Part shown: positions 1 to 64,000 of the stretch, piece by piece
How the letters are laid out: each line of letters opens with the position of its first letter
Numbering within the stretch: position 1 is the stretch's first letter
Assembly (NCBI RefSeq): GCF_025979705.1
Contig: NZ_CP110136.1
Span: forward strand, 124,001 to 188,000
Length of the DNA stretch: 64,000 nucleotides
Source of the DNA: Hymenobacter sp. YIM 151858-1
GTDB lineage: Bacteria; Bacteroidota; Bacteroidia; Cytophagales; Hymenobacteraceae
Direction: 5' to 3'
Position numbers and translations under genes: made by a program
The notes under the pieces: generated by a model
The model's database searches: none
The model's input: the letters and a program-made list of their open reading frames with translations, nothing else
What the model was told of the DNA's origin: nothing

Positions 1-1
1 C

Positions 2-1210
2 ATCGGCCAAAACCAGGACCTGAGCCTGCTGGCCACCTACCGCGACCTGTTGGCCCGCGACAGCGCCCGCCAACGCACGGCCCTAGGTCAGTTGGCCTGG
101 AACGCCTCGCTGCTGCAAGGGCAGGTGCGCTCCGAGCTGACGTACAACGTAGCCACCGGCCGCGAGCCGAAGCGCGACTACGTGTTCATACCGGTGCCAG
201 CCGGGCAGCAGGGGCAAGGCACGCACTACTACGCCGGCGACCTGAACAACAACGGCCGCCAGGACAAAGAGGAGTTTCTGGAGGCCGCTACGCCCGATGC
301 CGTGTTCCGCACGCACATCAAGGTGTTTTTGTTTACCGATACCTACGTAACGGCCTTCACCAACCGCTTTGGCTACCGCCTGCTGCTGGGCGCACCTAGG
401 GCGTGGCGCGAGGGCCGGGGCTGGCAGGCCGTGGCGGCGCGCTTCAGCAACGTCAGCAGCATCAACCTCGATCGGCGCACCACCGATAAGTCGCTGTCGG
501 CGCGCTTGAACCCGTTTGCCTACCAAACCAACGACGAGCAGTTGCTTTCGCTGAATAAGCTGCTGCGCAACACGCTGTACTTCAATCGCTCCAATCCGGT
601 ATTCGGGGCCGAGCTGACGGTGCTGCAGAATCAGCAGAAAACGCTGCTCACCACCGGCACCGATACGCGCAACCTAGCCAGCCAAAGCATGCTGCTGCGC
701 CGCACCTTGGCGCAATCGTTTACCTCGCGCCTCACGGCCACGCGCAGCATCCGCGAAAACAGCAGCACCTACCTGCTCACGCGCAACTTCCGCATCCGGC
801 AGTACGAGGTGGCGCCCGAGCTAAGCTACCAGCCCTCGGGCACATGGCGCTTCACGGGCACCTACCAGCACACCACCAAGGAAAACGTGTTCGGCCCCGA
901 AACCGGCGCCCGCGGTGCTTTCGATGAGTTGGGGGTTGAAACGCGCATCAGCCAGGTAAACAAGCGCACCGTTACGGCTGCCAGCCGCTACGTGCGCGTG
1001 GCCTACAGCGGCGACCAAGCTTCCGAAGCCTCCGTGGTGGGCCTCGAAATACTGCAGGCCCTGCGCCCCGGCAACAACGTAACCTGGACGATAAACCTGG
1101 AGCAGCGCCTCAGCAACGGCCTCAACATCACCATCAGCTACGACGGCCGCAAACCCGATGGCCTGCGCAGCATTCACACCGGGCGCATGCAGGCCTCGGT
1201 GCTGTTTTGA
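2..1210 (+). CDS. C-terminal part of a large outer-membrane/surface protein (5' end outside window)
   Basis: The reading frame is open from base 2 with no start, so the gene begins upstream and only about 402 C-terminal residues are visible. An early stretch contains DLNNNGRQDKEEF, which fits a calcium-binding EF-hand/dockerin loop (D-x-N-x-N-G-x-x-D). The rest is rich in alternating polar/aromatic residues, as in outer-membrane beta strands, and the last residue is Phe, the usual terminal residue of barrel proteins inserted by BAM. I infer a large Bacteroidota surface or outer-membrane protein but cannot name a family. The next gene is convergent, ending 21 bases downstream. Confidence 0.6.
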   Translation: MGQNQDLSLLATYRDLLARDSARQRTALGQLAWNASLLQGQVRSELTYNVATGREPKRDYVFIPVPAGQQGQGTHYYAGDLNNNGRQDKEEFLEAATPDAVFRTHIKVFLFTDTYVTAFTNRFGYRLLLGAPRAWREGRGWQAVAARFSNVSSINLDRRTTDKSLSARLNPFAYQTNDEQLLSLNKLLRNTLYFNRSNPVFGAELTVLQNQQKTLLTTGTDTRNLASQSMLLRRTLAQSFTSRLTATRSIRENSSTYLLTRNFRIRQYEVAPELSYQPSGTWRFTGTYQHTTKENVFGPETGARGAFDELGVETRISQVNKRTVTAASRYVRVAYSGDQASEASVVGLEILQALRPGNNVTWTINLEQRLSNGLNITISYDGRKPDGLRSIHTGRMQASVLF

Positions 1211-1230
1211 AAAACTTACTTCCTAGGTGC

Positions 1231-1848
1231 TCAGTAGCGCCAGTAACTTGGGCGTCGTACTGCCGGCTGCTTGCCTACTTTCTTGGTGATGTCGCGCTGC
1301 TTAAAGCAGAAATCGAACGGGTGACCGGTGCGCAGGGCGCGCAGCGTTAGCTCGGCGCAGGCCAGGGCGTCGGAAAGGCTGTCGTGGTGGTTTAGCTCGA
1401 TGCCGAAATGGGCCGACAGCTCGCTCAGCTTGCTGCGCCCGATGTGCGGAAAAGCCTCCTTGCACAGCTTAATCGAGCACATGCTGAAGAACTCGGGCAT
1501 GGGCAGCTGGTGCGTGGCCAGGCTATGCTGCAGCACGCTTACATCGAAAGAGGCATTGTGCGCCACTACCAACTGGCCCTGCATATAATGCTCGATGGCG
1601 GGCCACAGCTGCAGCAACGTAGCGGCGGGGCGCAGCTGCTCGGCCGAAATGCGATGAATGCTGTAGTTGATGCCCGACACGCGCAGCTCGGGCGGCCGGA
1701 TGAGGTGCTGCTCGCGCGCCACGATGTTGCCGCCGCGCACCTGCACAATGCCAATGGAGCAGGCGCTGTCGCGCTTCTCGTACGCCGTCTCGAAGTCGAT
1801 GGCGGTGAAGTTGAGCTCCTGGAGGTCCTGGAGGAGGCGTTTCTGCAT
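1231..1848 (-). CDS. DnaQ-like 3'-5' exonuclease (DEDDh)
   Basis: 205 residues with the three exonuclease motifs of the DNA polymerase III epsilon fold. Exo I is DFET (Asp18, Glu20), Exo II is HNASFD (Asp102) and Exo III is HHDSLSDA (His155, Asp160), so this is the DEDDh subtype. These acids bind two metals that cleave the terminal phosphodiester. The protein is short and has no polymerase-binding or BRCT domain, as expected of stand-alone exonucleases that proofread or trim DNA or RNA. The stop is convergent with the upstream surface-protein gene. The family is clear; the substrate is not. Confidence 0.85.
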   Translation of the reverse strand: MQKRLLQDLQELNFTAIDFETAYEKRDSACSIGIVQVRGGNIVAREQHLIRPPELRVSGINYSIHRISAEQLRPAATLLQLWPAIEHYMQGQLVVAHNASFDVSVLQHSLATHQLPMPEFFSMCSIKLCKEAFPHIGRSKLSELSAHFGIELNHHDSLSDALACAELTLRALRTGHPFDFCFKQRDITKKVGKQPAVRRPSYWRY

Positions 1849-1937
1849 GGCCGCGCGGTAAACTGGGTGGTAAATGATGCCTCGGGGCTAGGCCCGAAAA
1901 ACGGCATGCAATTACGCACTCTGTGGCCGCAACAGCC

Positions 1938-2852
1938 CTAGGGCAGCGGCGCTTTTTGGCCGGCAGCTACCGTGGGCCGCGGCCGCACCAAGGTGTAGAG
2001 CAAGCGGCCGCGCTGTAAGTCGGCTCCTTGCAGGCGCAGGGCGTACAGGCGTACCGTGTCGGGAGTGCTGATGTAGGCCAACCGACGGCGGCGCGGCGTG
2101 CCAGCATCGAGCAGCACGTAATCGAGGTTGTTGGCGTAGGTTTCAGCGAAATCGGTAGCGGCCTGGTAGCTGCGGTAGCGCCCCAGGCCACGCACACTCC
2201 CATCGGCACCTAGGCGCACCTGGCTGCAGCGCCCGGCCGAGTCGGTGGCTGCGTAGGTGCCGGCTAGTAGCTGCTGGTGTACGAAGCGTTGCACAGCGTT
2301 GGCCTCGGCGCCTGCGGCAGCGGCGTTGCGCTGCAGCCGGATGTATCGCTCCGACGCCAATTGCCGGCCGCTTTTGCTGTAGCGGTTTAGCAGCAGGGTG
2401 GTGTCGGCTAAGCGCTTCTCGTAGGCTAGCTCGAAAGCGTCATCAGGCTTCTCGGCGTCGCGGTAATCGGTGAGCAGGCCGGTATTGTTGGCCGTTGGGC
2501 GAAAATAGAGCGAGAGGTTGCCGGCTTCGTGGTTGTTTAGGTTGAGCGCCACGCGAAGGCTGTCGCCCGTGCGAGCAGCTGGGTCGATGCGCAGGGCCGC
2601 TATGCCCTGCAGAGTCGCAGCGGCTTGCAACGGCGAGCGGGTGCGGGCTACTTCCGCCATGTAGGTTTCTTTAACCCACACCCCGCGCAGCATGGGGCCA
2701 AACTCACGGGCCAAAGCCTCCACAGCAGCCGGCGTGACCGATTCGGCAGTTGAAGCAGGGTTGCGTTCGGCTTCCTGCTGACCTCGTTGGCAGGCAAGTA
2801 AACCGCCGCATGAAAGCAGTGCAAATAGTAAATGGCGAAGGGAGCAAGGCAT
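1938..2852 (-). CDS. putative lipoprotein of unknown function
   Basis: 304 residues. The start gives a short basic N-terminus, a hydrophobic core and the lipobox LLAC near residue 21, so it should be lipid-anchored after signal peptidase II cleavage. The mature part is soluble, Ala/Arg-rich and low in Cys. It has no motif I recognise, although the beta-rich pattern around residues 90-150 resembles small lipoprotein sensor or META/NlpE-like folds. It stands alone between the exonuclease and a repeat-containing spacer. Function unknown. Confidence 0.7.
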   Translation of the reverse strand: MPCSLRHLLFALLSCGGLLACQRGQQEAERNPASTAESVTPAAVEALAREFGPMLRGVWVKETYMAEVARTRSPLQAAATLQGIAALRIDPAARTGDSLRVALNLNNHEAGNLSLYFRPTANNTGLLTDYRDAEKPDDAFELAYEKRLADTTLLLNRYSKSGRQLASERYIRLQRNAAAAGAEANAVQRFVHQQLLAGTYAATDSAGRCSQVRLGADGSVRGLGRYRSYQAATDFAETYANNLDYVLLDAGTPRRRRLAYISTPDTVRLYALRLQGADLQRGRLLYTLVRPRPTVAAGQKAPLP

Positions 2853-2919
2853 GGAGAGAGGAAAAGAACACTCACCTGTACCGCAACTCAGCGCTTTGCG
2901 TTGCCCTAGGTGGTGTGCT

Positions 2920-3020
2920 GTAGCGCGGACTTTGTAGTCCGAGCTTGCTTAAACGGCGTCGTTGAACATAGAAAGTACAACGGCATCGTTCAATCAAACG
3001 CGGGCTGAAGCCCGCGCTAC
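2920..3020. repeat. palindromic intergenic repeat with GTAGCGCGG ends
   Basis: The ends form an inverted repeat: GTAGCGCGGACT at 2920-2931 against the complement of AGCCCGCGCTAC at 3009-3020 (11 of 12 match). Inside, two copies of ACGGCrTCGTT lie about 40 bases apart. The same terminal sequence recurs at 46828-46935, so this is a dispersed family, probably a small non-autonomous element or REP-like repeat. Confidence 0.75.
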
Positions 3021-3045
3021 ACCGGGCTACTGTTGTTCAGGCTGC

Positions 3046-5082: not shown

Positions 5083-5148
5083 AGGGCGAGTTTACGGCGA
5101 AGCGCCCAAGCAGGCGCAATTTCTTTGCCGTTTAGCTTCGGGCACTGC

Positions 5149-6564
5149 TTATATCATGCCCCTCGACTTAAACTCCAGGTACCGGTTGATGGTGTTGGCC
5201 GTGAGATTTTGCGGGGCCGTGAGCAAAGCCTGAATGCCGTAGCGCTGCAGTTCCAGCACCATGCGGCGCTTGTCCTGCACAAATTTTTCGGCTACGGTTT
5301 GGTTGTACAGTTCCTCGGTGCTGCTGGCCGGGGTTTCGAGCACGCTGCGCAGCTCGGTGTTCTCGAAGAACACTACCAGCAGCAGGTGCCGGCTAGCCAA
5401 GCGGCGCAGGTAAGGCAACTGGCGCTGCAGGCCGTGCAGGCTCTCGAAGTTGGTGAACAGCACCAGCAGGCTGCGCTGCTTTACCTGCCGCTGTACCAAG
5501 GCAGCCAGTCGCTCGAAGTCGGACTCTAGGAAGCGCGTTTGTTGCCGATACAGCACCTCCAGCAGGCGCGGCAGCTGGCCCCGGCGGCGGTCGGCGGGCA
5601 CCACGTCGCCGGGCTCGTGGGCGAAGGTGATGAGGCCAGCGCGGTCGTGCTTGATGAGGGCAATGTTGCTGAGCACCAGCGAGGCGTTGATGGCGTAATC
5701 GAGCAAGGCCAGCTGCTCGAAGGGCATGCGCATCACGCGGCCTTTATCGATAACGCAGTACACCTGCTGGGCGCGCTCGTCCTCGTGGTGATTCACGAGC
5801 AACTGGTCGCCGGCCTGGCTGGGGCGGCGGGCGGTGGCTTTCCAGTTGATGGTGCGCGGGTCGTCGCCGAGGGCGTAGGGGCGAATGTGGTCGAACTCCA
5901 TGCTTTGGCCCACGCGGCGAATGCGCTTCACGCCAACTTCGGTAAGGCGGTTGCTGAGGGCCAGCAGCTCGTAACGCCGCATCTGCAAAAACGAAGGATA
6001 CACGGCTACCGTCTCGTCGGCCTCGCCGAAACGGTAGCGGCGTTGCACCAGGCCCAGCGGCGAGCGGGCCAGCACGTTGGTTTGGCCGAACACGTACTCG
6101 CCGCGGCGCGTGGGCCGCAGCTGGTAGCGCAGCGTGGTGGCGGTGCCGCCGGCCAGCCGCAGCGGAAACAGCAAGTCGCGGCGCTGAAACTGCACGGGCA
6201 CATCGTCTACCACATCGAGGCGCGCGGCAAAGGGGTAGTGGTTTTCGACTATTACCTGCACGTCGTTGTCGTCGCCGTTGGAGAGGCGCCGGCCGAGTAT
6301 CCGCCGCGCAAACACGCCTTCGCCGCGGCCCAAGGCGTAGAGCAGCCCTAGGTCGAGGAGGGTGAAAAGCGTGAGGGCAACGGCCAGGATTTGCGCCGGC
6401 GCCACCAGCACGGGCCAGAAGTGCGCCACAATCAGCAGCGTAACTACCGCGGCCCACGCGGCAAAAAAGCGCGGCGGCAGCAGCAACGAGGCCACCAGAT
6501 TGCGGAAGAAGGAAGTGGGAGCAGGCATCGGCAACGAGGGCGCGTGCGGCAGGGAGTAATGCAC
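5149..6564 (-). CDS. DUF58 domain protein (MoxR-cluster membrane protein)
   Basis: About 471 residues. An internal Met at residue 13 (start 6528) is equally possible. Two membrane helices lie near residues 33-75, followed by an immunoglobulin-like stretch and the DUF58 signature EFDHIRPYALGDDPRTINWK (around 223-242), then a vWA-like region with LLVLFTNFES. DUF58 proteins are usually coded beside MoxR ATPases and are thought to be clients or partners in assembling metalloenzymes or in envelope stress. Here MoxR is the gene immediately upstream (7701-6682), so the context agrees. The ~120-base spacer to moxR holds a repeat arm and two CCTAGG sites. Confidence 0.9.
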   Translation of the reverse strand: MHYSLPHAPSLPMPAPTSFFRNLVASLLLPPRFFAAWAAVVTLLIVAHFWPVLVAPAQILAVALTLFTLLDLGLLYALGRGEGVFARRILGRRLSNGDDNDVQVIVENHYPFAARLDVVDDVPVQFQRRDLLFPLRLAGGTATTLRYQLRPTRRGEYVFGQTNVLARSPLGLVQRRYRFGEADETVAVYPSFLQMRRYELLALSNRLTEVGVKRIRRVGQSMEFDHIRPYALGDDPRTINWKATARRPSQAGDQLLVNHHEDERAQQVYCVIDKGRVMRMPFEQLALLDYAINASLVLSNIALIKHDRAGLITFAHEPGDVVPADRRRGQLPRLLEVLYRQQTRFLESDFERLAALVQRQVKQRSLLVLFTNFESLHGLQRQLPYLRRLASRHLLLVVFFENTELRSVLETPASSTEELYNQTVAEKFVQDKRRMVLELQRYGIQALLTAPQNLTANTINRYLEFKSRGMI

Positions 6565-6627
6565 CTAGGGCCTAGGTGCGGAAAAGAAAAAGCGGAGGGT
6601 CGGGGTTGCTATCCGGCGTCAGCACGC

Positions 6628-6659
6628 GAGATGTCTCGACAAGCTCGACATGACGTTCT
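6628..6659. repeat. single arm of a GTCAT-type dispersed repeat
   Basis: This 32-base stretch carries the core TCGACAAGCTC followed by ATGACGTTCT. It is nearly the same as 29328-29359 and related to the arms at 54182-54282. It occupies the spacer between moxR and the DUF58 gene of the same cluster, so the operon tolerates it. Confidence 0.6.
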
Positions 6660-6681
6660 TTTTGCCGGCTGCCTACGCGGC

Positions 6682-7701
6682 TTACCGCGGCACCTCCACT
6701 TGTTGCAGCAACTGCCGCACCACGTCGTCGGGGCCGAGGCCCTCCAGCTCGCGCTCGGGCGTCAGCTGAATGCGGTGGCGCAGCACCGGCGCGGCCAGGT
6801 GCTGAATGTCTTCGGGCGTTACGAAGTCGCGGCCGCGCAGGGCGGCCAGGGCTTTGGCGCCGTTCAGCAGGGCAATGGAGGCGCGCGGCGAGGCCCCTAG
6901 GTGCAGCGACTTGTGCGTGCGCGTGAGGCCCACCAGCCTGGCTACGTACTCAAACAACCTAGGCTCGACGTGCTGCTGGCGCACCTGGCGGCGCAGCGCG
7001 TGCAGCTGCTCGGGCGTAACCACGGCCTGCACCGCATCGAGCGGCAAGCCGCCCGAACCGGCGTGGTGGCCCTGCAGAATCAGGATTTCCTCGGCTTCGG
7101 TGGGGTAGGGTACGAGTACTTTGAACAGGAAACGGTCGAGCTGGGCTTCGGGCAGGCGGTACGTGCCTTCTTGCTCCACCGGGTTTTGGGTGGCTAGCAC
7201 CATAAAAGGCTCCCCCAGGCGGTGGGTGTGGCCGTCGTGGGTAATGTGGCGCTCCTCCATTACCTCGAACAAGGCCGACTGGGTTTTGGCCGGGGCGCGG
7301 TTAATCTCGTCGATCAGCACCACGCTCGAGAAGATGGGGCCCTGGCGAAACTCGAAGCTGCCGCGCGCCGGCACGTACACCGAGGTGCCGAGCACATCGG
7401 AGGGCATGAGGTCGGGCGTAAACTGGATGCGGCCAAACGGCACCGATAGCGTGCGGGCCAGCAGCTTGGCGGTAAGCGTTTTGGCAACGCCGGGCACGCC
7501 TTCGAGCAGCACGTGGCCATCGGCCAGCAACGCTACCAGCAGCAGCTCTACCAGGTCGTGTTGGCCTACGAGTACGCGGCTTACCTCGCGGCGCACGGCC
7601 TCGGTGGTGCCCGCAAGCTGGCTGAGGTCGGTGCGGGTGCCGAAGGGCATGTCGGCCGTTGCGTTGGTGGGGTGCGGAGTATGGTTGGTGGAGGGTTCCA
7701 T
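6682..7701 (-). CDS. MoxR-family AAA+ ATPase
   Basis: 339 residues, typical for MoxR. The Walker A motif is GVPGVAKT (68-75), and Walker B is VVLIDEINRAP (127-137, Asp131-Glu132). Sensor 1 is ATQNPVEQEG, and a C-terminal lid follows (SPRASIALL, sensor 2). MoxR ATPases act as chaperones that remodel or activate partner proteins, generally with DUF58 or vWA proteins encoded next door. The DUF58, DUF4350 and DUF4129 genes around it form that standard set. The start gives a ~20-residue polar leader; the Met at residue 18 is an alternative. Confidence 0.95.
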   Translation of the reverse strand: MEPSTNHTPHPTNATADMPFGTRTDLSQLAGTTEAVRREVSRVLVGQHDLVELLLVALLADGHVLLEGVPGVAKTLTAKLLARTLSVPFGRIQFTPDLMPSDVLGTSVYVPARGSFEFRQGPIFSSVVLIDEINRAPAKTQSALFEVMEERHITHDGHTHRLGEPFMVLATQNPVEQEGTYRLPEAQLDRFLFKVLVPYPTEAEEILILQGHHAGSGGLPLDAVQAVVTPEQLHALRRQVRQQHVEPRLFEYVARLVGLTRTHKSLHLGASPRASIALLNGAKALAALRGRDFVTPEDIQHLAAPVLRHRIQLTPERELEGLGPDDVVRQLLQQVEVPR

Positions 7702-7772
7702 GCGGTAAGAAGTGGCCGCGGCACCTAGGGCAGGGCGGGCGGCATGTAGTTGATAGAGGTTAAACCAAGCAA

Positions 7773-30397: not shown

Positions 30398-31201
30398 TTG
30401 GAACACGGAATTTGCGCCCTGAGCGTGGTGCCGGTGCGGGCCGAGCCGGCTGACAAAGCCGAAATCGTAACGCAGCTGATTTTCGGCGACTGCTACAGCA
30501 TTGTGCAGGCGCAGGGCAACTGGGTGCAGGTGCGCACCACCGCCGACGACTACCTCGGCTGGATGGACGTGAAGCAGCACACGCGCGTGTCGGCGGAGTA
30601 CCTGGCGGCCTGGAGCGCGCAAGACCACCCCCGCAGCCTCGATGTGGTGCAAATGGTGAGCAACGCCACCACCCGTATTCCCATTACCCTAGGTGCCCGC
30701 CTGCCGTTTTTTGATGGCATGACCCTGCGCCTCGGCTCCGAAACGTATTTCTACAACGGCGCGGCCACCAACCCGCTCAACGGCCACGGCCCGCTGGGCC
30801 CCGCCGACAAGCGCACGGCCTTGTTGCTGAAAGCCGGCCAACTGTTCCTGAAAGCACCGTACCTGTGGGGCGGCCGCACGCTGTTCGGCGTCGATTGCTC
30901 GGGCCTGATGCAGCAGCTGTTCGGGCTGATTGGCGTGCAGCTCCCCCGCGATGCCCGCCAGCAAATCGATCTAGGCGAGGTGGTGCACTTTGTAACCCAA
31001 ACCCGCCCCGGCGACCTGGCCTTTTTCGACAACGCCGACGGCCGCATCATTCACGTGGGCATGCTGCTCGACGACCAGCAGATTTTGCACGCCAGCGGCG
31101 AGGTGCGCGTGGATGTGCTCGACCACAACGGCATCTTCAACCAGCAACGCCAGAAGTACACCCACAAGCTGCGCCTCATTAAGCGCGTGCTGCCTGCCTA
31201 G
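30398..31201 (+). CDS. C40 (NlpC/P60) peptidase with SH3-like N-terminus
   Basis: I chose the TTG at 30398 (reads MEHGICALSVVPVRAEP) because a promoter-like TACCTTGCGGCC at 30365 precedes it; an upstream TTG at 30359 would lie in front of that. About 267 residues. The N-terminal ~120 residues form SH3-like domains (VPVRAEPADKAEIVTQLIFGD, WVQVRTTADDYLGWM). The NlpC/P60 domain has the Cys in FGVDCSGLMQQLFG and the His in HVGMLLDD. Such enzymes cut peptidoglycan peptides. No signal peptide is visible, which is common in this Bacteroidota subgroup. It stops in a CCTAGG (stop TAG). Confidence 0.88.
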   Translation: MEHGICALSVVPVRAEPADKAEIVTQLIFGDCYSIVQAQGNWVQVRTTADDYLGWMDVKQHTRVSAEYLAAWSAQDHPRSLDVVQMVSNATTRIPITLGARLPFFDGMTLRLGSETYFYNGAATNPLNGHGPLGPADKRTALLLKAGQLFLKAPYLWGGRTLFGVDCSGLMQQLFGLIGVQLPRDARQQIDLGEVVHFVTQTRPGDLAFFDNADGRIIHVGMLLDDQQILHASGEVRVDVLDHNGIFNQQRQKYTHKLRLIKRVLPA

Positions 31202-31337
31202 GTGCCGCCCCGGGCCCTGCAAAATGCAAGCATAATAGGCAAGCTCAACTTGAACCAACCCGCACCTGCGGTGGTTGCGTAAACGGCTGGAAAGCCCTAG
31301 CTTACCGCTAGTTCCGAACGCTTACGACCCCCGGTGT

Positions 31338-34634: not shown

Positions 34635-35708
34635 ATGTCAGTACCCAAGTTTGCCGCCGTTCGGCAAAAAGAGTCGTTTCACAATGAGCTGAAGCGCCGC
34701 GTCAACGCCTATTTCGAAGAATCGGGCAAAGCCACTACCGGCAACGCCACGCTGTTCACCAAAGCGGCCCTGCTCACGGGCGCGCTGCTGTTTCTCTACA
34801 TCCACCTCGTGTTCTTCACGCCGCCTACGGGCTGGGCCATTCTGGAGTGCATCCTGATGGGTGGGGTAGGGGCCGCTATCGGCTTCAACATCATGCACGA
34901 CGGTGCCCACGGTTCGTTCTCGAAGCACGGCTGGCTCAACCAGGCCGCCGCTTTCACCCTGAACGTGTTCGGCGGCAACTCGTTCATGTGGAACATGAAG
35001 CACAACCTCATCCACCACATGTACACCAACATCGACGGCGTGGATGACGACATCGATGCCCAGCCCTGGCTGCGCCTGAGCGAAACCCAGCCGCGCCGCG
35101 CCCTGCACCGCTACCAGCACTACTACTTCTGGTTTCTGTACGCCCTCTTCTACCTGGCTTGGGTTGTGATGATGGACTACCAGAAATACTTCAAAGGCTC
35201 CATCGGCTCGGTGCCGCTGAAGAAGATGGAAACCAAGGATCAGCTAGTGTTCTGGGGGTTTAAGGCGCTGTACCTCGTGCTTTTCGTGGGCATTCCCATC
35301 TACATCGTGGGCTTTCTGCCCTGGGTTATCGGCTTCCTGATCTTCGCCGCCGTGGCCGGTTTCTCGCTCAGCCTGGTGTTCCAGCTGGCCCACACCGTGG
35401 AGCCCGCCACCTTCCCGGTGCCCGACGCCCAGACCTACAAAATGGAAGATGAGTGGGCCGTGCACCAGCTGAAAACCACCGCCAACTTCGCCACCAACAA
35501 CAAAGTAGTTACCTGGCTCCTAGGTGGCCTGAACTTCCAGGTGGAGCATCACCTGTTCCCGAAAATTTCGCACGTGCACTACCCGGCCATCAGCAAGATC
35601 ATCAAGCAGGCCTGCGAGGAGTTCAACGTGACCTACAACGAATTCCCGCGCATGCGCTCGGCGGTGCTGTCGCACGTGCTGTTCCTGCGGCAGCTGGGGC
35701 GGGCGTAG
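34635..35708 (+). CDS. acyl-CoA/fatty acid desaturase
   Basis: Start 34635 (MSVPKFAAVRQKESFHNELKRRV). About 357 residues, four membrane helices. The three His boxes are HDGAHGS, HNLIHHMYTN and the final QVEHHLFP. The Gln in place of the first His of the third box is typical of front-end desaturases, here without a cytochrome b5 domain. It should insert a double bond into membrane fatty acids using ferredoxin or a separate electron donor. A promoter-like TACCTTCGCGGCC lies at 34602, 33 bases before the start. Confidence 0.92.
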   Translation: MSVPKFAAVRQKESFHNELKRRVNAYFEESGKATTGNATLFTKAALLTGALLFLYIHLVFFTPPTGWAILECILMGGVGAAIGFNIMHDGAHGSFSKHGWLNQAAAFTLNVFGGNSFMWNMKHNLIHHMYTNIDGVDDDIDAQPWLRLSETQPRRALHRYQHYYFWFLYALFYLAWVVMMDYQKYFKGSIGSVPLKKMETKDQLVFWGFKALYLVLFVGIPIYIVGFLPWVIGFLIFAAVAGFSLSLVFQLAHTVEPATFPVPDAQTYKMEDEWAVHQLKTTANFATNNKVVTWLLGGLNFQVEHHLFPKISHVHYPAISKIIKQACEEFNVTYNEFPRMRSAVLSHVLFLRQLGRA

Positions 35709-39296: not shown

Positions 39297-41942
39297 ATGA
39301 AAATCGTCGACCTCCGCACCATGCGTGGGCCTAGCTACTGGTCCGTGAAGCACCCCAAGATTATCGTGCTGAAACTTGACCTGGAAGAACTGGCCGATAC
39401 CTGGAGCAACGCCGTGCCGGGCCTCGATACGCGCCTGCTGCGCCTGCTGCCCAACCTCGAGGAGCCCCGCAGCAACGACGCCCGCGAGGCCTCCAAGCGC
39501 CCTCCGCTCTCGCGCGAGCAAATTGCCGACGGCGAACCATGGGGCCACATTGTGCAGCACGTGGCGCTGGAGCTGCAGCGCATGGCCGGCATGCCCATGC
39601 GCTGGGGCAAATCGCATCCGGCGCACGAGGAGAACATGGAGATGGTACTGTTCGAGTACCAGGAGGAGCGGGCGGGCCGTGTAGCGGCCGAAGCCGCCGT
39701 TGACCTGCTGAACGCCTTGGTGCGGAAGGAGAAGTACGACGTGCGCGCCATCGTCGACGAGCTGCACGAAATCCGGGAGGAGGAATACTTTGGGCCGAGC
39801 ACCTACAGCATTGTGGCGGAGGCGGCCTCGCGGGGCATTCCGTACATCCAGCTGCGCGAGAGCAACATCATTCAGCTGGGCTATGGCGTAAATCAAAAGC
39901 GCATTTGGGCCACTACCAGCAGCTACACCTCGCACGCGGCCGTGGAAATTGCCGGCAACAAAAACCGCACGAAAGCCTTGCTGGCCGAGGCAGGCGTGCC
40001 GGTGCCGCGCGGTACCACCGTGTACGATGCCGAAGAGCTGAAGCAGGCCGTGGAGGACCTAGGGTACCCCATCGTGACGAAGCCGCTCGACGGCAACCAC
40101 GGCAAGGGCGCTACCATCAACATCAAGAACTGGAAGGAGGCACTGGCCGGCCTGAAGGCCGCGCAACAGTACTCCGAGGCGGTGATTGTGGAGCAGTTCA
40201 TCGAGGGCTTCGATTTCCGCCTGCTCGTAATCAACGGCAAACTGGTGGCCGCGGCCAAGCGTACTCCGGCTGCCGTTACCGGCGACGGGGTGCACACCAT
40301 TCAGGAGCTGATCGACGAGATTAACAAAGACCCGCGACGTGGGATTGGCCACGAAAAGGTGCTCACTAAAATCAAAATTGATAAGCACACCAACCAAATC
40401 CTGAAGGCCCGCGAGCTGACGCCCAAATCGGTGCTGCCGGCGGGGGAGGTGCTGTACCTCAAGAGCACGGCCAACATCAGCACGGGCGGCACTGCTACCG
40501 ATGTCACCGACCTTGTCGACCCCTACAACGTGCTGTTGGCCGAACGCGTGGCCGGCATCATCGGGCTCGATATCTGCGGCATCGACGTGCTGACGACCGA
40601 CATTGCCATTCCGCTGAACGAAACGCGCGGAGCGGTAATTGAGGTAAACGCCGCGCCGGGCTTCCGGATGCACATTTCGCCCGCCGAAGGCCTGCCGCGC
40701 AACGTAGCCGCGCCCGTGGTGGATATGCTTTTCCCGAGGGGCGCTACCTCGCGCATTCCCATTTTCTCGGTAACGGGCACCAACGGCAAAACCACCACCA
40801 CTTTGCTGCTTTCTCACTTGGTAGCTTCCAAAGGCTTTAAAGTGGGCCACACCACCACCAGCGGCATTTACATACAGGGCCGCCAGCTGCAAAGCGGCGA
40901 CTGCACCGGCTCGCAAAGCACCGAGTTTGTGCTGAAAGACCCCACCGTAAACTTTGCGGTGCTGGAGGTGGCCCGCGGCGGTATGCTGCGCTCGGGCCTG
41001 GGCTTCCGGTACTGCGACGTGGCCGTGGTAACCAACGTGGCCGCCGACCACCTAGGGATGCGCGACATTCATACGGTAGAGGAAATGGCCGCCGTGAAGG
41101 GCGTGCTGCCGCGCACAGTGCGCAAGAGCGGCTGGGCCGTGCTCAACGCCGATAACGACTACACCTACGCCATGCGGCAATGGGTCGACTGCAAAGTGGC
41201 CCTGTTCAGCATGGATGAAAACAGCCCGCGTATCCGTAGCCACGTGGAGGCCGGCGGGGTGGCGGCCGTGTACGAAGAAGGCTACATCACGATTTACAAA
41301 AACACCTACAAGCTGCGCATCGACCAGGCCGAGAACTTCCCGATTACTCTAGGTGGCCGGGCCAAGTTCAACATCGAGAATGCCCTGGCAGCAGCTTTGG
41401 CGGCCTATTGCTACGGCTTCGATAAGGACGACATCAAGACGGCGCTGCGCACGTTTGTGCCGTCGGCCACGAAAACGCCGGGCCGCATGAACGTGTTCCG
41501 CTTCCCAGGTTTCGAGGTTATTGTCGACTACGCCCACAACACGCACGGCATCGAGAAATTCGGCGAGTTTCTGGCGGCCACGCCGGCCACGCACCGCGTG
41601 GGCGTGGTATCGGGCCTCGGCGACCGGCGCGAAGAAGACACCATCGACTACGCCCGAACAGCCGGCCGCATCTTCGATGAGGTGGTGCTGCGCCAGGACC
41701 GCGACCTGCGCGGCAAAACCGCCGAGGAAATTGAGCGCCTGATGCGCAGCGGCCTCACCATGGATAAGCCCGACCTGCCCATTTCGTACGTGGAGGACGA
41801 GCTCGATGCCATTGAGTACGCCGTGCAAACGGCCCGCGAAGGCTCGGTAATCACCATCTTCACCGAGAACATCAAAGGCGCCCTGGGTAAGGTGGAGGAG
41901 CTGCAGGCCCGCATTGGCCAACCCCAGCAGCAACCCGCCTAA
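39297..41942 (+). CDS. cphA: cyanophycin synthetase
   Basis: 881 residues, full length. An N-terminal domain (MKIVDLRTMRGPSYWS) is followed by an ATP-grasp domain (about 210-475, with NKNRTKALLAEAGVPVPRG, EQFIEGFDFRLLVI and GAVIEVNAAPGFRMH) and a Mur-ligase domain (about 490-870) with the P-loop GTNGKTTTTLL and DYAHNTHGIEKF. It polymerises Asp and Arg into cyanophycin, a nitrogen and carbon store, adding Asp and Arg in turn. No cyanophycinase or isoaspartyl dipeptidase is seen nearby. Confidence 0.95.
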   Translation: MKIVDLRTMRGPSYWSVKHPKIIVLKLDLEELADTWSNAVPGLDTRLLRLLPNLEEPRSNDAREASKRPPLSREQIADGEPWGHIVQHVALELQRMAGMPMRWGKSHPAHEENMEMVLFEYQEERAGRVAAEAAVDLLNALVRKEKYDVRAIVDELHEIREEEYFGPSTYSIVAEAASRGIPYIQLRESNIIQLGYGVNQKRIWATTSSYTSHAAVEIAGNKNRTKALLAEAGVPVPRGTTVYDAEELKQAVEDLGYPIVTKPLDGNHGKGATINIKNWKEALAGLKAAQQYSEAVIVEQFIEGFDFRLLVINGKLVAAAKRTPAAVTGDGVHTIQELIDEINKDPRRGIGHEKVLTKIKIDKHTNQILKARELTPKSVLPAGEVLYLKSTANISTGGTATDVTDLVDPYNVLLAERVAGIIGLDICGIDVLTTDIAIPLNETRGAVIEVNAAPGFRMHISPAEGLPRNVAAPVVDMLFPRGATSRIPIFSVTGTNGKTTTTLLLSHLVASKGFKVGHTTTSGIYIQGRQLQSGDCTGSQSTEFVLKDPTVNFAVLEVARGGMLRSGLGFRYCDVAVVTNVAADHLGMRDIHTVEEMAAVKGVLPRTVRKSGWAVLNADNDYTYAMRQWVDCKVALFSMDENSPRIRSHVEAGGVAAVYEEGYITIYKNTYKLRIDQAENFPITLGGRAKFNIENALAAALAAYCYGFDKDDIKTALRTFVPSATKTPGRMNVFRFPGFEVIVDYAHNTHGIEKFGEFLAATPATHRVGVVSGLGDRREEDTIDYARTAGRIFDEVVLRQDRDLRGKTAEEIERLMRSGLTMDKPDLPISYVEDELDAIEYAVQTAREGSVITIFTENIKGALGKVEELQARIGQPQQQPA

Positions 41943-43133: not shown

Positions 43134-43745
43134 ATGTCAGCAACCCCCTTCGACGCCGCTTATTGGAGCGCCCGCTACGCCGCCGGCCACGACCAGTGGG
43201 ATACCGGCGCCGTGACCGAACCGCTTCGGGCGTACTTCGCTCAGCTGGGCCCCGGCGATGCCCGCCGCATTCTGATTCCGGGTGCTGGCCGCGCCTACGA
43301 GGCTGAGTACCTGCATCGTGCAGGGTTTGCGCAGGTGTACGTGGCCGACATTGCGCCCGAGGCCCTAGGTGCGCTGCAACAGCGCGTACCCGATTTTCCG
43401 GCCGAGCACCTGCTGCTTCAGGATTTCTTCGCCTTGCAAGGGCCCTACGACCTAATCGTGGAGCAAACATTTTTCTGCGCCCTCGATCCTGCGCTGCGCC
43501 TCCGCTACGCCCAGCAGTGTGCCAACCTGCTCCGGCCGGGCGGCAAGCTGGTGGGTTTACTCTTCGATGGCCAGGTAGGTCCGGGCAACGAGCCGCCCTT
43601 CGGCGGTACCCGCCAAGAGTACCGCCGTTACTTCGAGCCGTACTTCGATTTCATTTACTTCGATACGGCCTACAACTCCATTAAGCCGCGGGCCGACCGC
43701 GAGCTGTTCATCTGCCTTCAGAAAAAAGCCGACACCCTGGCCTAG
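43134..43745 (+). CDS. thiopurine S-methyltransferase-like methyltransferase
   Basis: Start 43134 (MSATPFDAAYWSARYAAGHDQWDTGAVT). About 203 residues. The TPMT signature FWxxRY-like start and the SAM site LIPGAGRAYEAEYLHRAGFAQVYVADIAPEAL are clear, followed by DFFALQGPYDLIVEQTFFCAL. Bacterial TPMT-like enzymes methylate selenium, tellurium, thiols or small toxins. It ends in a CCTAGG (stop TAG) 28 bases before kdsA, so co-transcription is likely. Confidence 0.85.
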   Translation: MSATPFDAAYWSARYAAGHDQWDTGAVTEPLRAYFAQLGPGDARRILIPGAGRAYEAEYLHRAGFAQVYVADIAPEALGALQQRVPDFPAEHLLLQDFFALQGPYDLIVEQTFFCALDPALRLRYAQQCANLLRPGGKLVGLLFDGQVGPGNEPPFGGTRQEYRRYFEPYFDFIYFDTAYNSIKPRADRELFICLQKKADTLA

Positions 43746-43772
43746 GTGCCGAGGCGTCATTCCTCTACCAAC

Positions 43773-44600
43773 ATGCTGAATACCCTAACCGCTGCCCTGC
43801 CCAACTTCGCACATACCAACTCGGGCCAGTTCTTCCTGATGGCCGGCCCTTGCGTTATCGAAGGCGAAGACATGGCCTTGCGCATTGCCGAGCAGGTGCG
43901 CACGATTTGCGACCGGCTGCAGATTCCGTTCATCTTTAAGGGCTCGTACCGCAAGGCCAACCGTTCGCGCCTCGACTCCTTCACGGGCATCGGCGACGAA
44001 ACCGCGCTGCGCATCCTGCAGAAAGTGGGCCGCGAAATCGGCGTGCCCACCGTTACCGACATTCACGAATCGGGGGAGGCGGCCATGGCGGCCGAGTACG
44101 TGGATGTGCTGCAGATACCCGCCTTTTTGTGCCGCCAAACCGAGCTGCTGGTGGCTGCGGCCGAAACGGGCAAGGTGGTCAACATCAAGAAAGGCCAGTT
44201 TTTGTCGGGCGAATCGATGGGCTTTGCCGTGGATAAGGTGCGCCAGTCGGGCAACCCGCACGTAATCCTCACCGACCGCGGCAACTCGTTCGGCTACTCC
44301 GATCTGGTGGTGGATTACCGCAACATTCCGGCCATGCAAAGCTTCGGCGTGCCCGTGGTGATGGACGTAACGCACTCCCTGCAGGAGCCCAACCAAAGCA
44401 GCGGCGTAACCGGCGGCAAGCCGCAACTCATCCAAACCATTGCCAGCGCCGCCATTGCCGTGGGCGCCGATGGCTTGTTCATCGAAACGCACCCCACGCC
44501 CGCCACGGCCAAATCGGACGGCGCCAACATGCTGCAGCTCGACCGCCTCGAAGCATTGCTGGAGCGCCTGACGCGCATCCGCGAGGCGGTGCGCGCCTAG
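43773..44600 (+). CDS. kdsA: 3-deoxy-8-phosphooctulonate (KDO 8-P) synthase
   Basis: Start 43773 (MLNTLTAALPNFAHTNSGQFFLMAGPCVIEGED). 275 residues. Motifs are AGPCVIEGE, FIFKGSYRKANRSR (PEP and arabinose 5-phosphate binding) and DVTHSLQEPNQSSGVTGGKPQ. It condenses PEP with arabinose 5-phosphate to form KDO 8-phosphate for lipopolysaccharide, so the cell has a KDO-containing outer membrane. The Asn in KANRSR and the QSSG loop fit the metal-independent class, though this is only inference. The stop TAG is in CCTAGG. Confidence 0.96.
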   Translation: MLNTLTAALPNFAHTNSGQFFLMAGPCVIEGEDMALRIAEQVRTICDRLQIPFIFKGSYRKANRSRLDSFTGIGDETALRILQKVGREIGVPTVTDIHESGEAAMAAEYVDVLQIPAFLCRQTELLVAAAETGKVVNIKKGQFLSGESMGFAVDKVRQSGNPHVILTDRGNSFGYSDLVVDYRNIPAMQSFGVPVVMDVTHSLQEPNQSSGVTGGKPQLIQTIASAAIAVGADGLFIETHPTPATAKSDGANMLQLDRLEALLERLTRIREAVRA

Positions 44601-44625
44601 GTGCCAGAACTATTATCCGGCATTC

Positions 44626-46072: not shown

Positions 46073-46735
46073 ATGACCGTAAAGATAGATGAAAGCTGGC
46101 GCAAGGTGTTGCAGCCCGAGTTCGAGAAGCCCTATTTTCAGGAGCTTATTCAATTTGTAAAGCAGGAGTACCAAACGCAAACGGTATACCCCGCGGGCGG
46201 CCAGATTTTCCATGCTTTCGACGCCTGCCCCTTCGAGCGGGTGAAGGTGGTTATCCTAGGTCAGGACCCGTACCACGGCAAAGGCCAGGCCCACGGATTG
46301 GCCTTTTCGGTGCAGTTTGGGGTTCGGTCGCCGCCTTCGCTCGTCAACGTGTTCAAGGAGCTGGAAAGCGACCTGGGCATCGCGCGCCCCGACAACGGCA
46401 ACCTCGACCGGTGGGCCCAGCAAGGCGTGCTGCTGCTGAATGCCACGCTTACGGTACGCGCCTCCACGCCCGGCTCGCACCAGAAGAAAGGCTGGGAGGA
46501 GTTCACCGATGCCGTTATCCGCATCATCTCCGAGCAGAAGGAGCACGTGGTGTTCATCCTGTGGGGGGCCTACGCCCAGAAAAAAGCCGAGCTAATCGAC
46601 AGCCGCAAGCACCTCGTGCTGAAAGCCGCGCACCCCTCGCCCTACGCCGCCGATAAAGGATTCTTCGGCTCGAAGCCCTTCAGCAAAACCAACGCTTACC
46701 TGCAGCAGAAAGGTCTGGAGCCCATTCAGTGGTAG
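46073..46735 (+). CDS. ung: uracil-DNA glycosylase (family 1)
   Basis: Start 46073 (MTVKIDESWRKVLQPEFEKPYFQ), fixed by the promoter. 220 residues. Family 1 motifs: VILGQDPYHGKGQAHGL (catalytic Asp), LLLNATLTV and HPSPYAADKGFFGSKPFSKTNAYL. It removes uracil from DNA to begin base-excision repair. Preceded by a classical promoter, followed by a nested repeat element. Confidence 0.97.
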   Translation: MTVKIDESWRKVLQPEFEKPYFQELIQFVKQEYQTQTVYPAGGQIFHAFDACPFERVKVVILGQDPYHGKGQAHGLAFSVQFGVRSPPSLVNVFKELESDLGIARPDNGNLDRWAQQGVLLLNATLTVRASTPGSHQKKGWEEFTDAVIRIISEQKEHVVFILWGAYAQKKAELIDSRKHLVLKAAHPSPYAADKGFFGSKPFSKTNAYLQQKGLEPIQW

Positions 46736-51063: not shown

Positions 51064-54152
<3,089 letters not shown>

Positions 54153-59287: not shown

Positions 59288-59304
59288 CGGCCCCTAGGTG
59301 CCCG

Positions 59305-59351: not shown

Positions 59352-59372
59352 GTAATCCGGGCTTGCCCTAGG

Positions 59373-61103: not shown

Positions 61104-61250
61104 TGGCTTAGGCAAAGGAAAAGAACTCAGAAGCAGGCCGTTGCCCGGCGGATGAGCGCGCCTTTGGCACTAGGCTTTGGCTCTTTTCGAAGGGGTTTCG
61201 GAAGGGCCGCCAGATGCCAAAAAACGGGCTCCGCGAACGGGAAAGACGTG

Positions 61251-61258
61251 TATATTTG
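61251..61258 (+). promoter_or_regulatory. promoter box TATATTTG before the metal-dependent hydrolase
   Basis: TATATTTG fits TAnnTTTG and lies 62 bases before the hydrolase start. Confidence 0.6.
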
Positions 61259-61319
61259 TAGCAAAGTACGGCTAAATCTGCGCTCGGCCGCAGCCGTGTT
61301 TATCCGCTAACTTCGCTGC

Positions 61320-62000: not shown

Positions 62001-62088
62001 AAGCTTTCAGCCGATAGCGGCAAGCCATTGGCCGAAAACTTCGTCATAAACTAACAGCTAAAAGCCAACAGCTAATAGCTCAGAACAC

Positions 62089-62898
62089 ATGGGTAAAATT
62101 ATTGCGGTAGCAAACCAGAAAGGCGGCGTGGGCAAAACCACCTCGTCCATCAACCTCGCGGCGTCGTTGGCTGCGCTGGAATACCGCACCCTGCTGGTAG
62201 ATGCCGATCCGCAGGCCAACGCCACCTCCGGCGTGGGCTTCGATCCGAAGGACATCCAACACAGCATTTACGAGTGCATGGTCGACGGCATCAACGCCCA
62301 GGACATTATCCTGCAGACCAATATTCTGCCTCACCTCGACCTGATGCCTTCGCACATCGACCTGGTAGGGGCCGAGGTGGAAATGATCAACCTGCCCAAC
62401 CGCGAGGAAAAGATGAAGCAGGCGTTGGCGGCGTTGGCCGATCAGTACGACTTCATCATCATCGACTGTTCGCCCTCCCTAGGTCTGATCACCGTAAACG
62501 CCCTCACGGCCGCCAACTCGGTGATTATCCCGGTGCAGTGCGAGTACTTTGCCCTGGAGGGCCTGGGCAAGCTGCTGAACACCATCAAGATTATCCAGAG
62601 CCGCCTGAACCCGCAGTTGGAAATCGAGGGCATCCTGCTCACGATGTACGACGTGCGTTTGCGCCTCTCCAACCAGGTGGTAGAAGAGGTAAAGCTGCAC
62701 TTCCAGCAACTGGTGTTCGATACCATCATTCCGCGCAACGTAAAGCTGTCGGAGTCGCCGAGCTTCGGTATTCCGGTTATCCTGCACGATGCCGAAAGCA
62801 AAGGCTCGATCAGTTACCTGAACCTGGCCCGCGAAATCGTGGAGAAAAACGCCGTAACCCAGGACGGCGCCGCTTACGCCGAAGGCGACGCCGCGTAA
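62089..62898 (+). CDS. parA: ParA/Soj chromosome-partition ATPase
   Basis: 269 residues. Deviant Walker A KGGVGKTT (about 11-18), Walker A' DADPQANAT and Walker [15 protein letters not shown]. It makes ATP-dependent dynamic gradients with ParB-parS to move origins apart. ParB normally lies next to it; here it is 11 kb away in reverse orientation. A terminator containing CCTAGG follows. Confidence 0.96.
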
Positions 62899-62922
62899 AC
62901 GTTATTTGCTACTTCAGCCTGC

Positions 62923-62954
62923 AAGGGCAGCTCCTACCTAGGAGCTGCCCTTTT
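62923..62954 (+). terminator. parA terminator with CCTAGG at its apex
   Basis: AAGGGCAGCTCCTA pairs with TAGGAGCTGCCCTT, and a CCTAGG spans the loop and stem. Followed by T-run. Confidence 0.85.
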
Positions 62955-63260
62955 GCTTTGCCTCAAAAACCCGCGCCGGGGAGTGCGAAGCCGGACAGCG
63001 TGCGGCTGGGATTATCGGGTGTTGGTGGTGCGCCGATTAGCCGAAAACCCACGATCAAGCATCTCATCAGTAGGCAATTATGATTTATTGTAGAGGTATT
63101 GTATTTGTTATATTATTCCTTGATGAAATAAAATTTAAAGATTAAATTATCTAAACAAAACATCAAACCGTACAAGGTATGGCTCCCTACAGCTACTGCT
63201 TTTCCGCCGTGGCGCACTCGTGCTCTTCGCTATTACCCGCCCACCTCTTCTCCACCCGCT
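62955..63260 (+). other. AT-rich spacer before secreted-protein gene
   Basis: About 300 bases with no gene. From 63080 to 63180 it is clearly AT-rich, as upstream regions are here, but no sure promoter box was identified. Confidence 0.4.
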
Positions 63261-64000
63261 ATGAAGCATGCTTTACTGTTATTCCTCCTGTCGGTAGGGC
63301 AGGTGGGATACTTACAGAGTTCGGCTTCGGGGCAAAACCTGATCCAGAACGGAACCTTTAGCAAGTACCCGGCGCACTCGGCCACTGCCGCCGAACTGCC
63401 GCCCGGAACCGACCTAGGCGGCTGGAGCAGTGGTTTGGGGTATGCCGGCACCAGCATGTACCCGCCCGATACCAAGATATCGGTGCAAACGGGCTCCGTT
63501 GTTTACTACTACAACATGGTGCGCCAAGGTACTTTCCCCGGCGACCCGGCCAACCGCGTGCCGCCGTCCAGCACTTGGCTGTACTCCAACGGCAATATCA
63601 GCGGCTTGCCCATGACGGTGTGGATTCAGCGCGTGGAGGTGAAGCCCAATGCCGATTACCTGTTCAGCTTTTATACCTCCAACGCCATCAGCTCGGAGCG
63701 CGACCTGAAGTCGGACCCGGTGCTGCGCATCGAGGTGGATGGCAAGCAGGTAGGAAAAGACATGCAGGTGTACGACGAGGCCGATCCGCGCTCGGGCCAC
63801 AACGGCCGCGACGGTTGGGACCGGCGCGTAGTGCACTTTCAAACCGGGCCCACCACTACCAGCATCGAGCTGAAGATTATTGACCTGGCCACCGATAGCA
63901 ACGGCGACGACCTGGCCCTTACCGCCCTGGACTTGCACCAGGCTACCAAGGAAGAAATTATTCGGGCCACCGCGCCCAGCGGGCTGGCGCTGTTTCCTAA
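63261..64000 (+). CDS. secreted, probably type IX cargo protein (3' end outside window)
   Basis: The ATG at 63261 gives MKHALLLFLLSVGQVGYLQSSASGQNLIQNGTFSKY, a signal peptide followed by NLIQNGTF, typical of carbohydrate-binding-type beta domains. The frame stays open to the window end, at 246 residues, and its last visible residues, PSGLALFP, resemble the start of a type IX C-terminal sorting domain (usually a LYPNP-like motif). It is therefore probably a secreted beta-rich protein exported by the type IX system. The sorting domain itself is beyond the window. Confidence 0.65.
   Translation, partial: MKHALLLFLLSVGQVGYLQSSASGQNLIQNGTFSKYPAHSATAAELPPGTDLGGWSSGLGYAGTSMYPPDTKISVQTGSVVYYYNMVRQGTFPGDPANRVPPSSTWLYSNGNISGLPMTVWIQRVEVKPNADYLFSFYTSNAISSERDLKSDPVLRIEVDGKQVGKDMQVYDEADPRSGHNGRDGWDRRVVHFQTGPTTTSIELKIIDLATDSNGDDLALTALDLHQATKEEIIRATAPSGLALFP

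What the first reader, a model, noticed from the sequence alone, without database searches (positions are those of the whole stretch)
1..64000. CCTAGG is a highly iterated palindrome in this genome
By hand I count about 78 CCTAGG sites (plus or minus a few), roughly one per 820 bases, against about 21 expected from base composition. CTAG is normally rare in bacteria, yet here about half of the CTAG occurrences I noticed sit in CCTAGG. About a third extend on one side as CCTAGGTGC. In genes it usually codes Leu-Gly with the otherwise uncommon CTA codon (e.g. RLGADG in 1938-2852). In the NlpC, methyltransferase and kdsA genes the stop codon TAG lies in it. This resembles cyanobacterial HIP1, where a palindrome is kept at high density, perhaps by methylation, mismatch or recombination systems.
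Basis: partly seen in the sequence, partly recalled or inferred. Interest (0 to 1): 0.75.

Follow-up and report, generated by a model that had tools for sequence, protein, structure and literature searches.

The report
Uptake-sequence-like DNA motif in Hymenobacter relatives
An eight-letter DNA word (ACCTAGG followed by G or C) is stamped about once per thousand letters across this bacterium's chromosome, and related bacteria carry different versions of it or none, much like the tags some bacteria use to recognise and take up DNA of their own kind.

Summary
It is not a plain palindrome: 460 of 491 sampled sites carry exactly one A/T flank (245 expected), so the unit is ACCTAGGS. Of 200 family genomes 9 have 5,325-8,806 CCTAGG, 4 have 1,209-2,331, and 187 have 54-888. 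On a YidC tree the enriched genomes fall into four groups with different dialects: ACCTAGGS, ASCTAGST, TGGCCTAG, (A/S)CCTAGGS. In this genome sites show no strand order, are twice as dense between genes, densest between convergent genes, and close pairs are mostly inverted. No methyltransferase family of four tested is shared by the 13 enriched genomes; one of them lacks all four. Best reading: a DNA-uptake-sequence-like self-recognition word spread by molecular drive. Competence is unproven, type IV pilin signals are absent, few one-mismatch sites are seen, and no recogniser was found. HIP1-like drive is the main rival.

The parts
1..64000. 78 CCTAGG cores across the window (all coordinates). 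Oriented by the single A flank: 29 as ACCTAGG on +, 44 on -, 5 without exactly one A/T flank.
6561..6579 (.). Inverted pair GCACCTAGG-G-CCTAGGTGC: two oppositely oriented sites one base apart
   Evidence: (sites 6564 + and 6571 -)
1937..1942 (.). CCTAGG supplying the TAG stop of a predicted minus-strand gene
31197..31202 (.). CCTAGG (ACCTAGGC on -) supplying the TAG stop of predicted gene 30398-31201
43741..43746 (.). CCTAGG (ACCTAGGC on -) supplying the TAG stop of predicted gene 43134-43745
44596..44601 (.). CCTAGG (ACCTAGGC on -) supplying the TAG stop of predicted gene 43773-44600
46255..46260 (-). Site present in enriched relatives G004 and G005; all five low congeners read CCTGGG or CCTCGG here
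52739..52744 (+). ACCTAGGG site; G004 has the same, G005 ACCTAGGC, the three low congeners aligned here ACCTGGGC
41051..41056 (+). ACCTAGGG site in the cyanophycin synthetase gene; G005 has the same, G004 ACCTAGGC, the five low congeners ACCTCGGG or ACCTGGGY
35519..35524 (-). Site kept in G004 and G005; the four low congeners aligned here read GCTGGGCGG or GCTCGGCGG

Best explanation
ACCTAGGS is a lineage-specific self-recognition word that works like a DNA uptake sequence. A cell-surface or uptake-associated protein that prefers it brings in DNA carrying it. Homologous recombination then copies it into the chromosome, so sites accumulate by molecular drive wherever coding constraint is weak (intergenic ends, synonymous X-Leu-Gly positions) until about one per kb. 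Changes in the recogniser produce dialects around a shared CTAG core; its loss lets the word vanish. Shown: the word, its asymmetry, its genome-wide density, its dialects, its near absence from low congeners and from the sampled smaller replicons, its excess conservation, context-dependent gain, intergenic and inverted-pair placement, lack of strand order, and ComEC in every genome tested. Inferred: competence, uptake preference, the recogniser, and recombination as the copying step.
For: Density about 1.15 per kb. Single-sided motif: 460 of 491 sites vs 245 expected. Four tree groups, four dialects. Low congeners have 9 CCTAGG in 420 kb. Conserved at 53 of 69 aligned sites in G004 and 30 of 37 in G005, vs 57% and 59% for 6-mers of the same composition (p 0.001 and 0.006). 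A G000 CCCAGG reads CCTAGG in the relative mainly in dialect flanks: flanks judged in the relative 13 of 28 vs 2 of 37 (G004) and 10 of 16 vs 2 of 21 (G005); only places with identical flanks in both, 8 of 20 vs 1 of 30 (p 0.002) and 9 of 12 vs 2 of 19 (p 0.0005). Intergenic 2.07 vs coding 0.91 per kb (p 3e-16); convergent 4.6, tandem 2.9, divergent 2.1 per kb. Pairs within 50 bp: 25 inverted, 3 direct (G000, G004+G005, and CTAGGCCA in G171); one folds as a 17-bp hairpin whose 3' arm ends in a T run, -31 kcal/mol, z -7.6. No strand order: 2,272 vs 2,286 genome-wide, heterogeneity over 18 stretches p 0.21. Similar features are reported for DUS (passages of PMC3630211; PMC1939737). Bacteroidota can be naturally competent: Riemerella columbina prefers its own DNA (passages of PMC7965970), and R. 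anatipestifer uses ComEC, DprA, ComF, RecA plus four proteins of unknown function (abstract of PMC8459023). ComEC: 31 of 31 genomes.
Against: No competence is known to me here: the two papers holding both 'Hymenobacter' and 'natural competence' have one mention of each and were seen only in the listing; Flavobacterium johnsoniae was not competent in the R. columbina study (abstract passage). Type IV pilin signal PF07963: 0 of 31 genomes, controls 8 of 14. ComEC is equally present in low genomes, so it does not explain on/off. In the own clade one-mismatch words are only 1.24 times expectation (1.08 in the low control) against about elevenfold for a Pasteurellaceae uptake sequence. Dialects of G079/G180 and G058 are palindromic or nearly so; uptake sequences are described as not palindromic, and only about 10% as inverted repeats. 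With flanks judged in G000 the context effect is not significant for G004 (9 of 26 vs 6 of 39, p 0.13; for G005 9 of 14 vs 3 of 23, p 0.003). Placement differs between clades: G079 is highest in divergent regions, G180 has no intergenic excess, and for the shorter word TAGGCCA in G171 pairs are 11 inverted, 7 direct. Counting pairs within 60 bp in G000 gives 17 inverted, 6 direct.
Confidence: 0.4

Rival explanations
1. HIP-like drive inside the cell: a sequence-specific modification or mismatch-repair activity preserves mutations that create the word, as Elhai proposes for HIP1, with no link to uptake.
For: Density like HIP1 (about 1 per kb). Sharp word: one-mismatch excess over perfect-match excess is 0.27 in G000; the HIP1 row for Synechocystis in PMC1939737 gives about 0.3 by my arithmetic. 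Alternate HIPs also occur sporadically (PMC4390886 section 2.3 and part 1 of section 3.4). The commonest gain is CCCAGG/CCTGGG to CCTAGG (15 of 26 in G004, 12 of 17 in G005).
Against: Methyltransferase families PF01555, PF00145, PF02086, PF02384 do not track enrichment; G163 lacks all four, D12 is in 0 of 13 enriched genomes. One-sided flank rule. Gains also come by transversions and at other positions. Nothing in that model predicts inverted pairs or convergent-gene excess.
Confidence: 0.22
2. Selection for binding of a chromosomal protein (nucleoid, segregation, replication or repair) or for another intracellular role.
For: Chromosome-wide spread; near absence from 20-kb samples of two smaller replicons and of one island; excess conservation.
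Against: Spacing is close to random (CV 0.91), no orientation order, and close relatives live without it. Turnover of dialects within one family is unlike core chromosome machinery.
Confidence: 0.15
3. A context-dependent mutation bias alone, without any benefit or copying.
For: The main gain path is a transition, synonymous as CTG to CTA in the usual phase.
Against: The same transition depends on flanks (weaker for G004 when flanks are judged in G000); states in low congeners differ at each core position in at least one case, often at several at once; excess conservation needs maintenance as well.
Confidence: 0.1
4. A Chi-like recombination hotspot or an orienting sequence for chromosome segregation.
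For: Asymmetric 8-mer, over-represented.
Against: Both strands used equally overall (2,272 vs 2,286); the best two-arc split of the sampled chromosome gives only 58% co-orientation, heterogeneity p 0.21 (origin not mapped); nearly absent in five of eight genus genomes.
Confidence: 0.04
5. Mainly a transcription terminator element.
For: Convergent-gene excess, inverted pairs, hairpin.
Against: 291 of 491 sites lie wholly inside predicted genes; only a minority are in close inverted pairs.
Confidence: 0.03

Closest known systems
DNA uptake sequences (DUS) of Neisseriaceae, with dialects (PMC3630211, 12 of 30 passages found)
   Same: About 1 per kb, intergenic regions permissive, inverted pairs at terminators, core-genome location, lineage-wise dialects around a conserved core
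   Different: Core is CTAG not CTG; some dialects palindromic; no type IV pilin signal found; uptake never tested; different phylum
Uptake signal sequences of Pasteurellaceae (PMC1939737, passages)
   Same: Density, no orientation bias, non-coding excess
   Different: In this clade there is almost no halo of one-mismatch sites; that paper cites even spacing for uptake sequences, here spacing is near random
HIP1 and alternate HIPs of cyanobacteria (PMC4390886; abstract, section 2.3 and part 1 of 2 of section 3.4)
   Same: Iterated octamer at about 1 per kb, sporadic replacement by other words, sharp consensus
   Different: Asymmetric word here; no shared methyltransferase of the four families tested
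Chi (recalled; also a table row in PMC1939737)
   Same: Asymmetric over-represented octamer
   Different: No strand order, on/off among congeners

Membership tests
DUS/USS uptake sequence | Single short word over-represented genome-wide at about 1 per kb | tested here: met
DUS/USS uptake sequence | Non-palindromic word | tested here: inconclusive
   Met in the G000 clade and in G171; not met in G079/G180 (ASCTAGST) and largely not in G058 (CCCTAGGG)
DUS/USS uptake sequence | No orientation bias along the chromosome | tested here: met
   for G000 only; origin not mapped
DUS/USS uptake sequence | Non-coding excess and inverted pairs at terminators | tested here: met
   G000, G004+G005 and (CTAGGCCA) G171; weak or absent intergenic excess in G180 and G137
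DUS/USS uptake sequence | Related dialects following phylogeny | tested here: met
   single-gene tree, group G184/G058/G137 weakly supported (84/59)
DUS/USS uptake sequence | Marked excess of one-mismatch variants (molecular drive halo) | tested here: not met
   1.24 times in G000, 1.3 in G004+G005, 1.08 in the low control; 2.2-3.3 times in other dialects, where part is true degeneracy
DUS/USS uptake sequence | Type IV pilus / minor pilin receptor | tested here: not met
   PF07963 in 0 of 31 genomes; rings in 8 of 14 control genomes
DUS/USS uptake sequence | DNA with the word is preferentially taken up | not testable with these tools
   Needs a transformation assay
HIP1-type iterated palindrome | Palindromic octamer | tested here: not met
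   ACCTAGGS in the own clade
HIP1-type iterated palindrome | Cognate DNA methyltransferase in genomes with the word | tested here: not met
   Four families searched in 31 genomes, none common to the 13 enriched ones, G163 has none; families specific to type IIG enzymes not searched, specificities not known
HIP1-type iterated palindrome | About 1 site per kb | tested here: met
Chi | Strand bias with replication | tested here: not met
   (origin not mapped)

The most novel reading that the evidence does not exclude
An uptake-sequence system outside the Pasteurellaceae and Neisseriaceae: a type-IV-pilus-independent self-DNA recognition system in the Hymenobacter family, with at least four CTAG-cored dialects switched on and off among close species, read by an unknown protein.
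Probability: 0.35. Interest if true: 0.9.

Novelty: new variant of a known kind. Interest (0 to 1): 0.75.

Why it matters
Words at this density that mark a genome as 'self' are known in few groups, and how they arise and change is disputed. Here close species with and without the word, and several dialects in one family, give a natural experiment: gene-content comparison should expose the recogniser, and transformation tests with short DNA would decide between uptake drive and HIP-like repair drive. Uptake specificity without type IV pili would be new to my knowledge.

Tried and rejected
Considered and put aside: window-only artefact (refuted); composition effect (control word 75 copies; low congeners, 63% G+C against 61%, have 9 in 420 kb); plain palindrome; C5, beta-class, D12 and gamma N6 methyltransferases as common cause; type IV pilus; Chi or segregation sequence; even spacing; depletion of one particular one-mismatch neighbour as sign of one-step conversion (not seen). 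ComEC did not separate high from low genomes. A scan for named relatives kept 80 of 590 loci, of which four were Hymenobacter, none with CCTAGG among its five commonest CTAG 6-mers in about 20 kb; the tool says records near the window's genome may be left out. Of 395 genomes over the phylum none but G000 has many ACCTAGGS (next: G379 with 126 and 140), but only four of the 395 are of this family. The structure and fold tools were not used.

Weak points: gene calls are from my own codon-usage gene finder on sampled stretches, not a standard annotator; the tree is one gene (YidC); dialects rest on 10-404 kb samples per genome. One search ended in an error at the short stretch L076 (G181), so G181, G010 and G012 were not counted there, and G149's 1-kb stretch (L053) was left out. 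The context test is partly circular where flanks are judged in the relative; one search gives the other two ways of judging. An earlier count said about 45 genomes nearly without GGATCC; recounting one search gives 31 of 200 with 15 or fewer.

Print: in the held library no paper has 'Hymenobacter' with 'DNA uptake sequence', with 'CCTAGG', or with 'overrepresented' and 'octamer'; two have 'Hymenobacter' with 'natural competence' and three have 'DNA uptake sequence', 'Bacteroidetes' and 'natural transformation', all seen in the listing only.
Full report
Observation. The window holds exactly 78 CCTAGG against 13.1 in dinucleotide shuffles. The genome (4,621,779 bases, three contigs; window = contig 1, 124001-188000) holds 5,325 against 75 for the reversed control word. 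In 464 kb of sampled sequence CCTAGG is the most enriched 6-mer, and ACCTAGGG (291 vs 10.3 expected) the most enriched 8-mer, under a third-order Markov model. Named relatives by CTP synthase are Hymenobacter species at 84-86% identity, then Adhaeribacter, Rufibacter and Pontibacter at 78-79%, so membership of the Hymenobacter family is an inference.

The real unit. In 404 kb of chromosome, 460 of 491 CCTAGG sites have exactly one A/T flank (ACCTAGG followed by G 290, C 139, A 31), 7 have both and 24 neither. Independent flanks would give 245, 114 and 131. The word is therefore ACCTAGGS, often extended to CACCTAGGGC (100 vs 2.2). Genome-wide ACCTAGGS occurs 2,272 times on one strand and 2,286 on the other.

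Where it is. Of 18 sampled 20-kb stretches of the chromosome 17 have 15-30 sites and one, C1:1.10-1.12 Mb, has 1; 20-kb samples of contigs 2 and 3 have 2 and 0. The contig 3 sample has a TraG-type gene, so it looks like a conjugative plasmid (inference). Of the 491 sites in the 404-kb sample (which leaves out that island and contigs 2 and 3), 291 lie wholly in predicted genes (0.91 per kb), 172 in intergenic DNA (2.07 per kb) and 28 at edges; 261 of the 291 read X-Leu-Gly with CTA, 30 Pro-Arg, and none is in the stop phase. Convergent intergenic regions have 4.6 sites per kb, tandem 2.9, divergent 2.1 (convergent vs divergent p 0.006, vs tandem p 0.04). Spacing is near random (CV 0.91). Pairs of oriented sites within 50 bp are inverted rather than direct: 14 to 2 in G000, 4 to 1 in G004 and G005, 7 to 0 for CTAGGCCA in G171 (together p 3e-5). 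Within 60 bp in G000 it is 17 to 6 (my count of the list, 3 unoriented pairs aside), and for the shorter TAGGCCA in G171 11 to 7. One pair, L002:4210-4255, folds into a 17-bp hairpin (one G-U pair) whose 3' arm ends in a T run, -31.2 kcal/mol, z -7.6. Orientation shows no order along the chromosome (heterogeneity p 0.21, best two-arc split 58%).

Relatives. Within the genus, G000, G004 and G005 have 5,325, 5,678 and 6,212 CCTAGG; the other five genomes have 123-249. Of 200 family genomes 9 have over 5,000 (also G058, G079, G137, G178, G180, G184), 4 have 1,209-2,331 (G162, G163, G171, G172), 187 have 54-888; the 13 are all in two of the six genera sampled. Of 395 genomes drawn over the phylum none but G000 has many ACCTAGGS; only four of those were of this family.

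Dialects. k-mer counts without a preset motif show: G004 and G005 ACCTAGGS like G000; G079, G178 and G180 ASCTAGST (G079 in 100 kb: ACCTAGGT 66, ACCTAGCT 62, AGCTAGCT 27); G171, and more weakly G172 and G163, TGGCCTAG, often ASTGGCCTAG (G171: CTAGGCCA 97 vs 5.9); G058 CCCTAGGG (120 vs 4.7 on both strands, that is 60 sites); G137 and G184 mixtures of ACCTAGGS and SCCTAGGS. G162 was seen in only 10 kb, too little to settle. A YidC tree puts these in four separate groups with low genomes between: G000/G004/G005 (100/100), G079/G178/G180 (100/100), G162/G163/G171/G172 (88/78; 100/100 with G149), and G184/G058/G137 (84/59). Whether this is several gains or one gain with losses is not resolved. The low genomes sampled (20-40 kb each) mostly show no comparable word. 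Exceptions: G052 CCTACCCC 19 vs 1.6, G083 GGGGCCCC 38 vs 8.6, G138 CGACGGCA 18 vs 2.1, G007 ACGGCCGT 18 vs 2.2, and G003 AACGTCAT 14 vs 0.7, the last with other words that look like pieces of a longer repeat.

Evolution of sites. Against G004 (89% identical where aligned), 53 of 69 aligned sites are conserved and against G005 30 of 37, versus 57% and 59% for other 6-mers of the same composition; CCTGGG/CCCAGG are conserved only in 23 of 66 and 11 of 37. Sites in G004 but not G000 number 26, of which 15 are CCCAGG/CCTGGG in G000; in G005 17, of which 12. This change depends on context. With flanks judged in the relative: 13 of 28 in dialect flanks vs 2 of 37 otherwise (G004), 10 of 16 vs 2 of 21 (G005). 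With flanks judged in G000: 9 of 26 vs 6 of 39 (p 0.13) and 9 of 14 vs 3 of 23 (p 0.003). With identical flanks in both: 8 of 20 vs 1 of 30 (p 0.002) and 9 of 12 vs 2 of 19 (p 0.0005). In low congeners the orthologous places read CCTGGG, CCTCGG, CCCAGC, CCGCGG and others, each core position differing in at least one case. So the final word, not one mutation type, seems favoured. Against a slow-drive picture, one-mismatch words in G000 are only 1.24 times expectation (low control 1.08); in other dialects 2.2-3.3 times.

Mechanism. Four methyltransferase families were searched in 31 genomes (13 enriched, G052, 17 low). PF01555 is missing from 8 of 13 enriched genomes, PF00145 from 9 of 13, PF02086 from 13 of 13, PF02384 from 2 of 13; G163 lacks all four. 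PF02384 covers type I enzymes with bipartite targets (recalled), so its wide presence (28 of 31) says little. Type IV pilin PF07963 is in none, ComEC in all 31. Published Bacteroidota data show competence with ComEC, DprA, ComF, RecA and four proteins of unknown function (abstract), and preference for own DNA in Riemerella columbina, though Flavobacterium johnsoniae was not competent under the same conditions (passages). DUS and USS share with this word the density, lack of orientation bias, non-coding excess, inverted pairs, core-genome placement and dialects. I therefore favour uptake-linked molecular drive at 0.4, ahead of HIP-like intracellular drive at 0.22. Membership in the DUS family is not claimed: the pilus part and the one-mismatch halo were tested and not met, and uptake was not testable.

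Noticed in passing
L003:11226-11361 (G000 C1, about 451 kb); single copies of the 10-mer at window 17513, 17920, 18023, 42033 and L015:8929: Heptamer array (TAAGCCC)n of about 19 copies between predicted genes, with single copies elsewhere.
   Followed up: partly
   Followed up: no
family genomes: GGATCC is nearly absent (15 or fewer copies) in 31 of 200 family genomes but common in most others, as restriction avoidance would give.
   Followed up: no
L057 (G052) and L065 (G083): Other enriched words: CCTACCCC 19 vs 1.6 and GGGGCCCC 38 vs 8.6 in 20 kb; G052 lies next to an enriched group on the tree and may hold a further dialect.
   Followed up: no
G137, G184, G178, G180, G151, G189, G161 samples: CTAG as a whole is not depleted (2.7-5.4 per kb) whereas the low congeners of the own genus have 0.62 per kb; G151, G189 and G161 show this without any clearly enriched word.
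   Followed up: no
L006 (G000 C1:1100001-1120000): Stretch with one CCTAGG in 20 kb; proteins with Big_7/GDSL lipase and pectate-lyase-like domains and a 1630-aa open frame without Pfam match.
   Followed up: partly
window 39345-41942: Cyanophycin synthetase gene (TIGR02068, 1102 bits).
   Followed up: no
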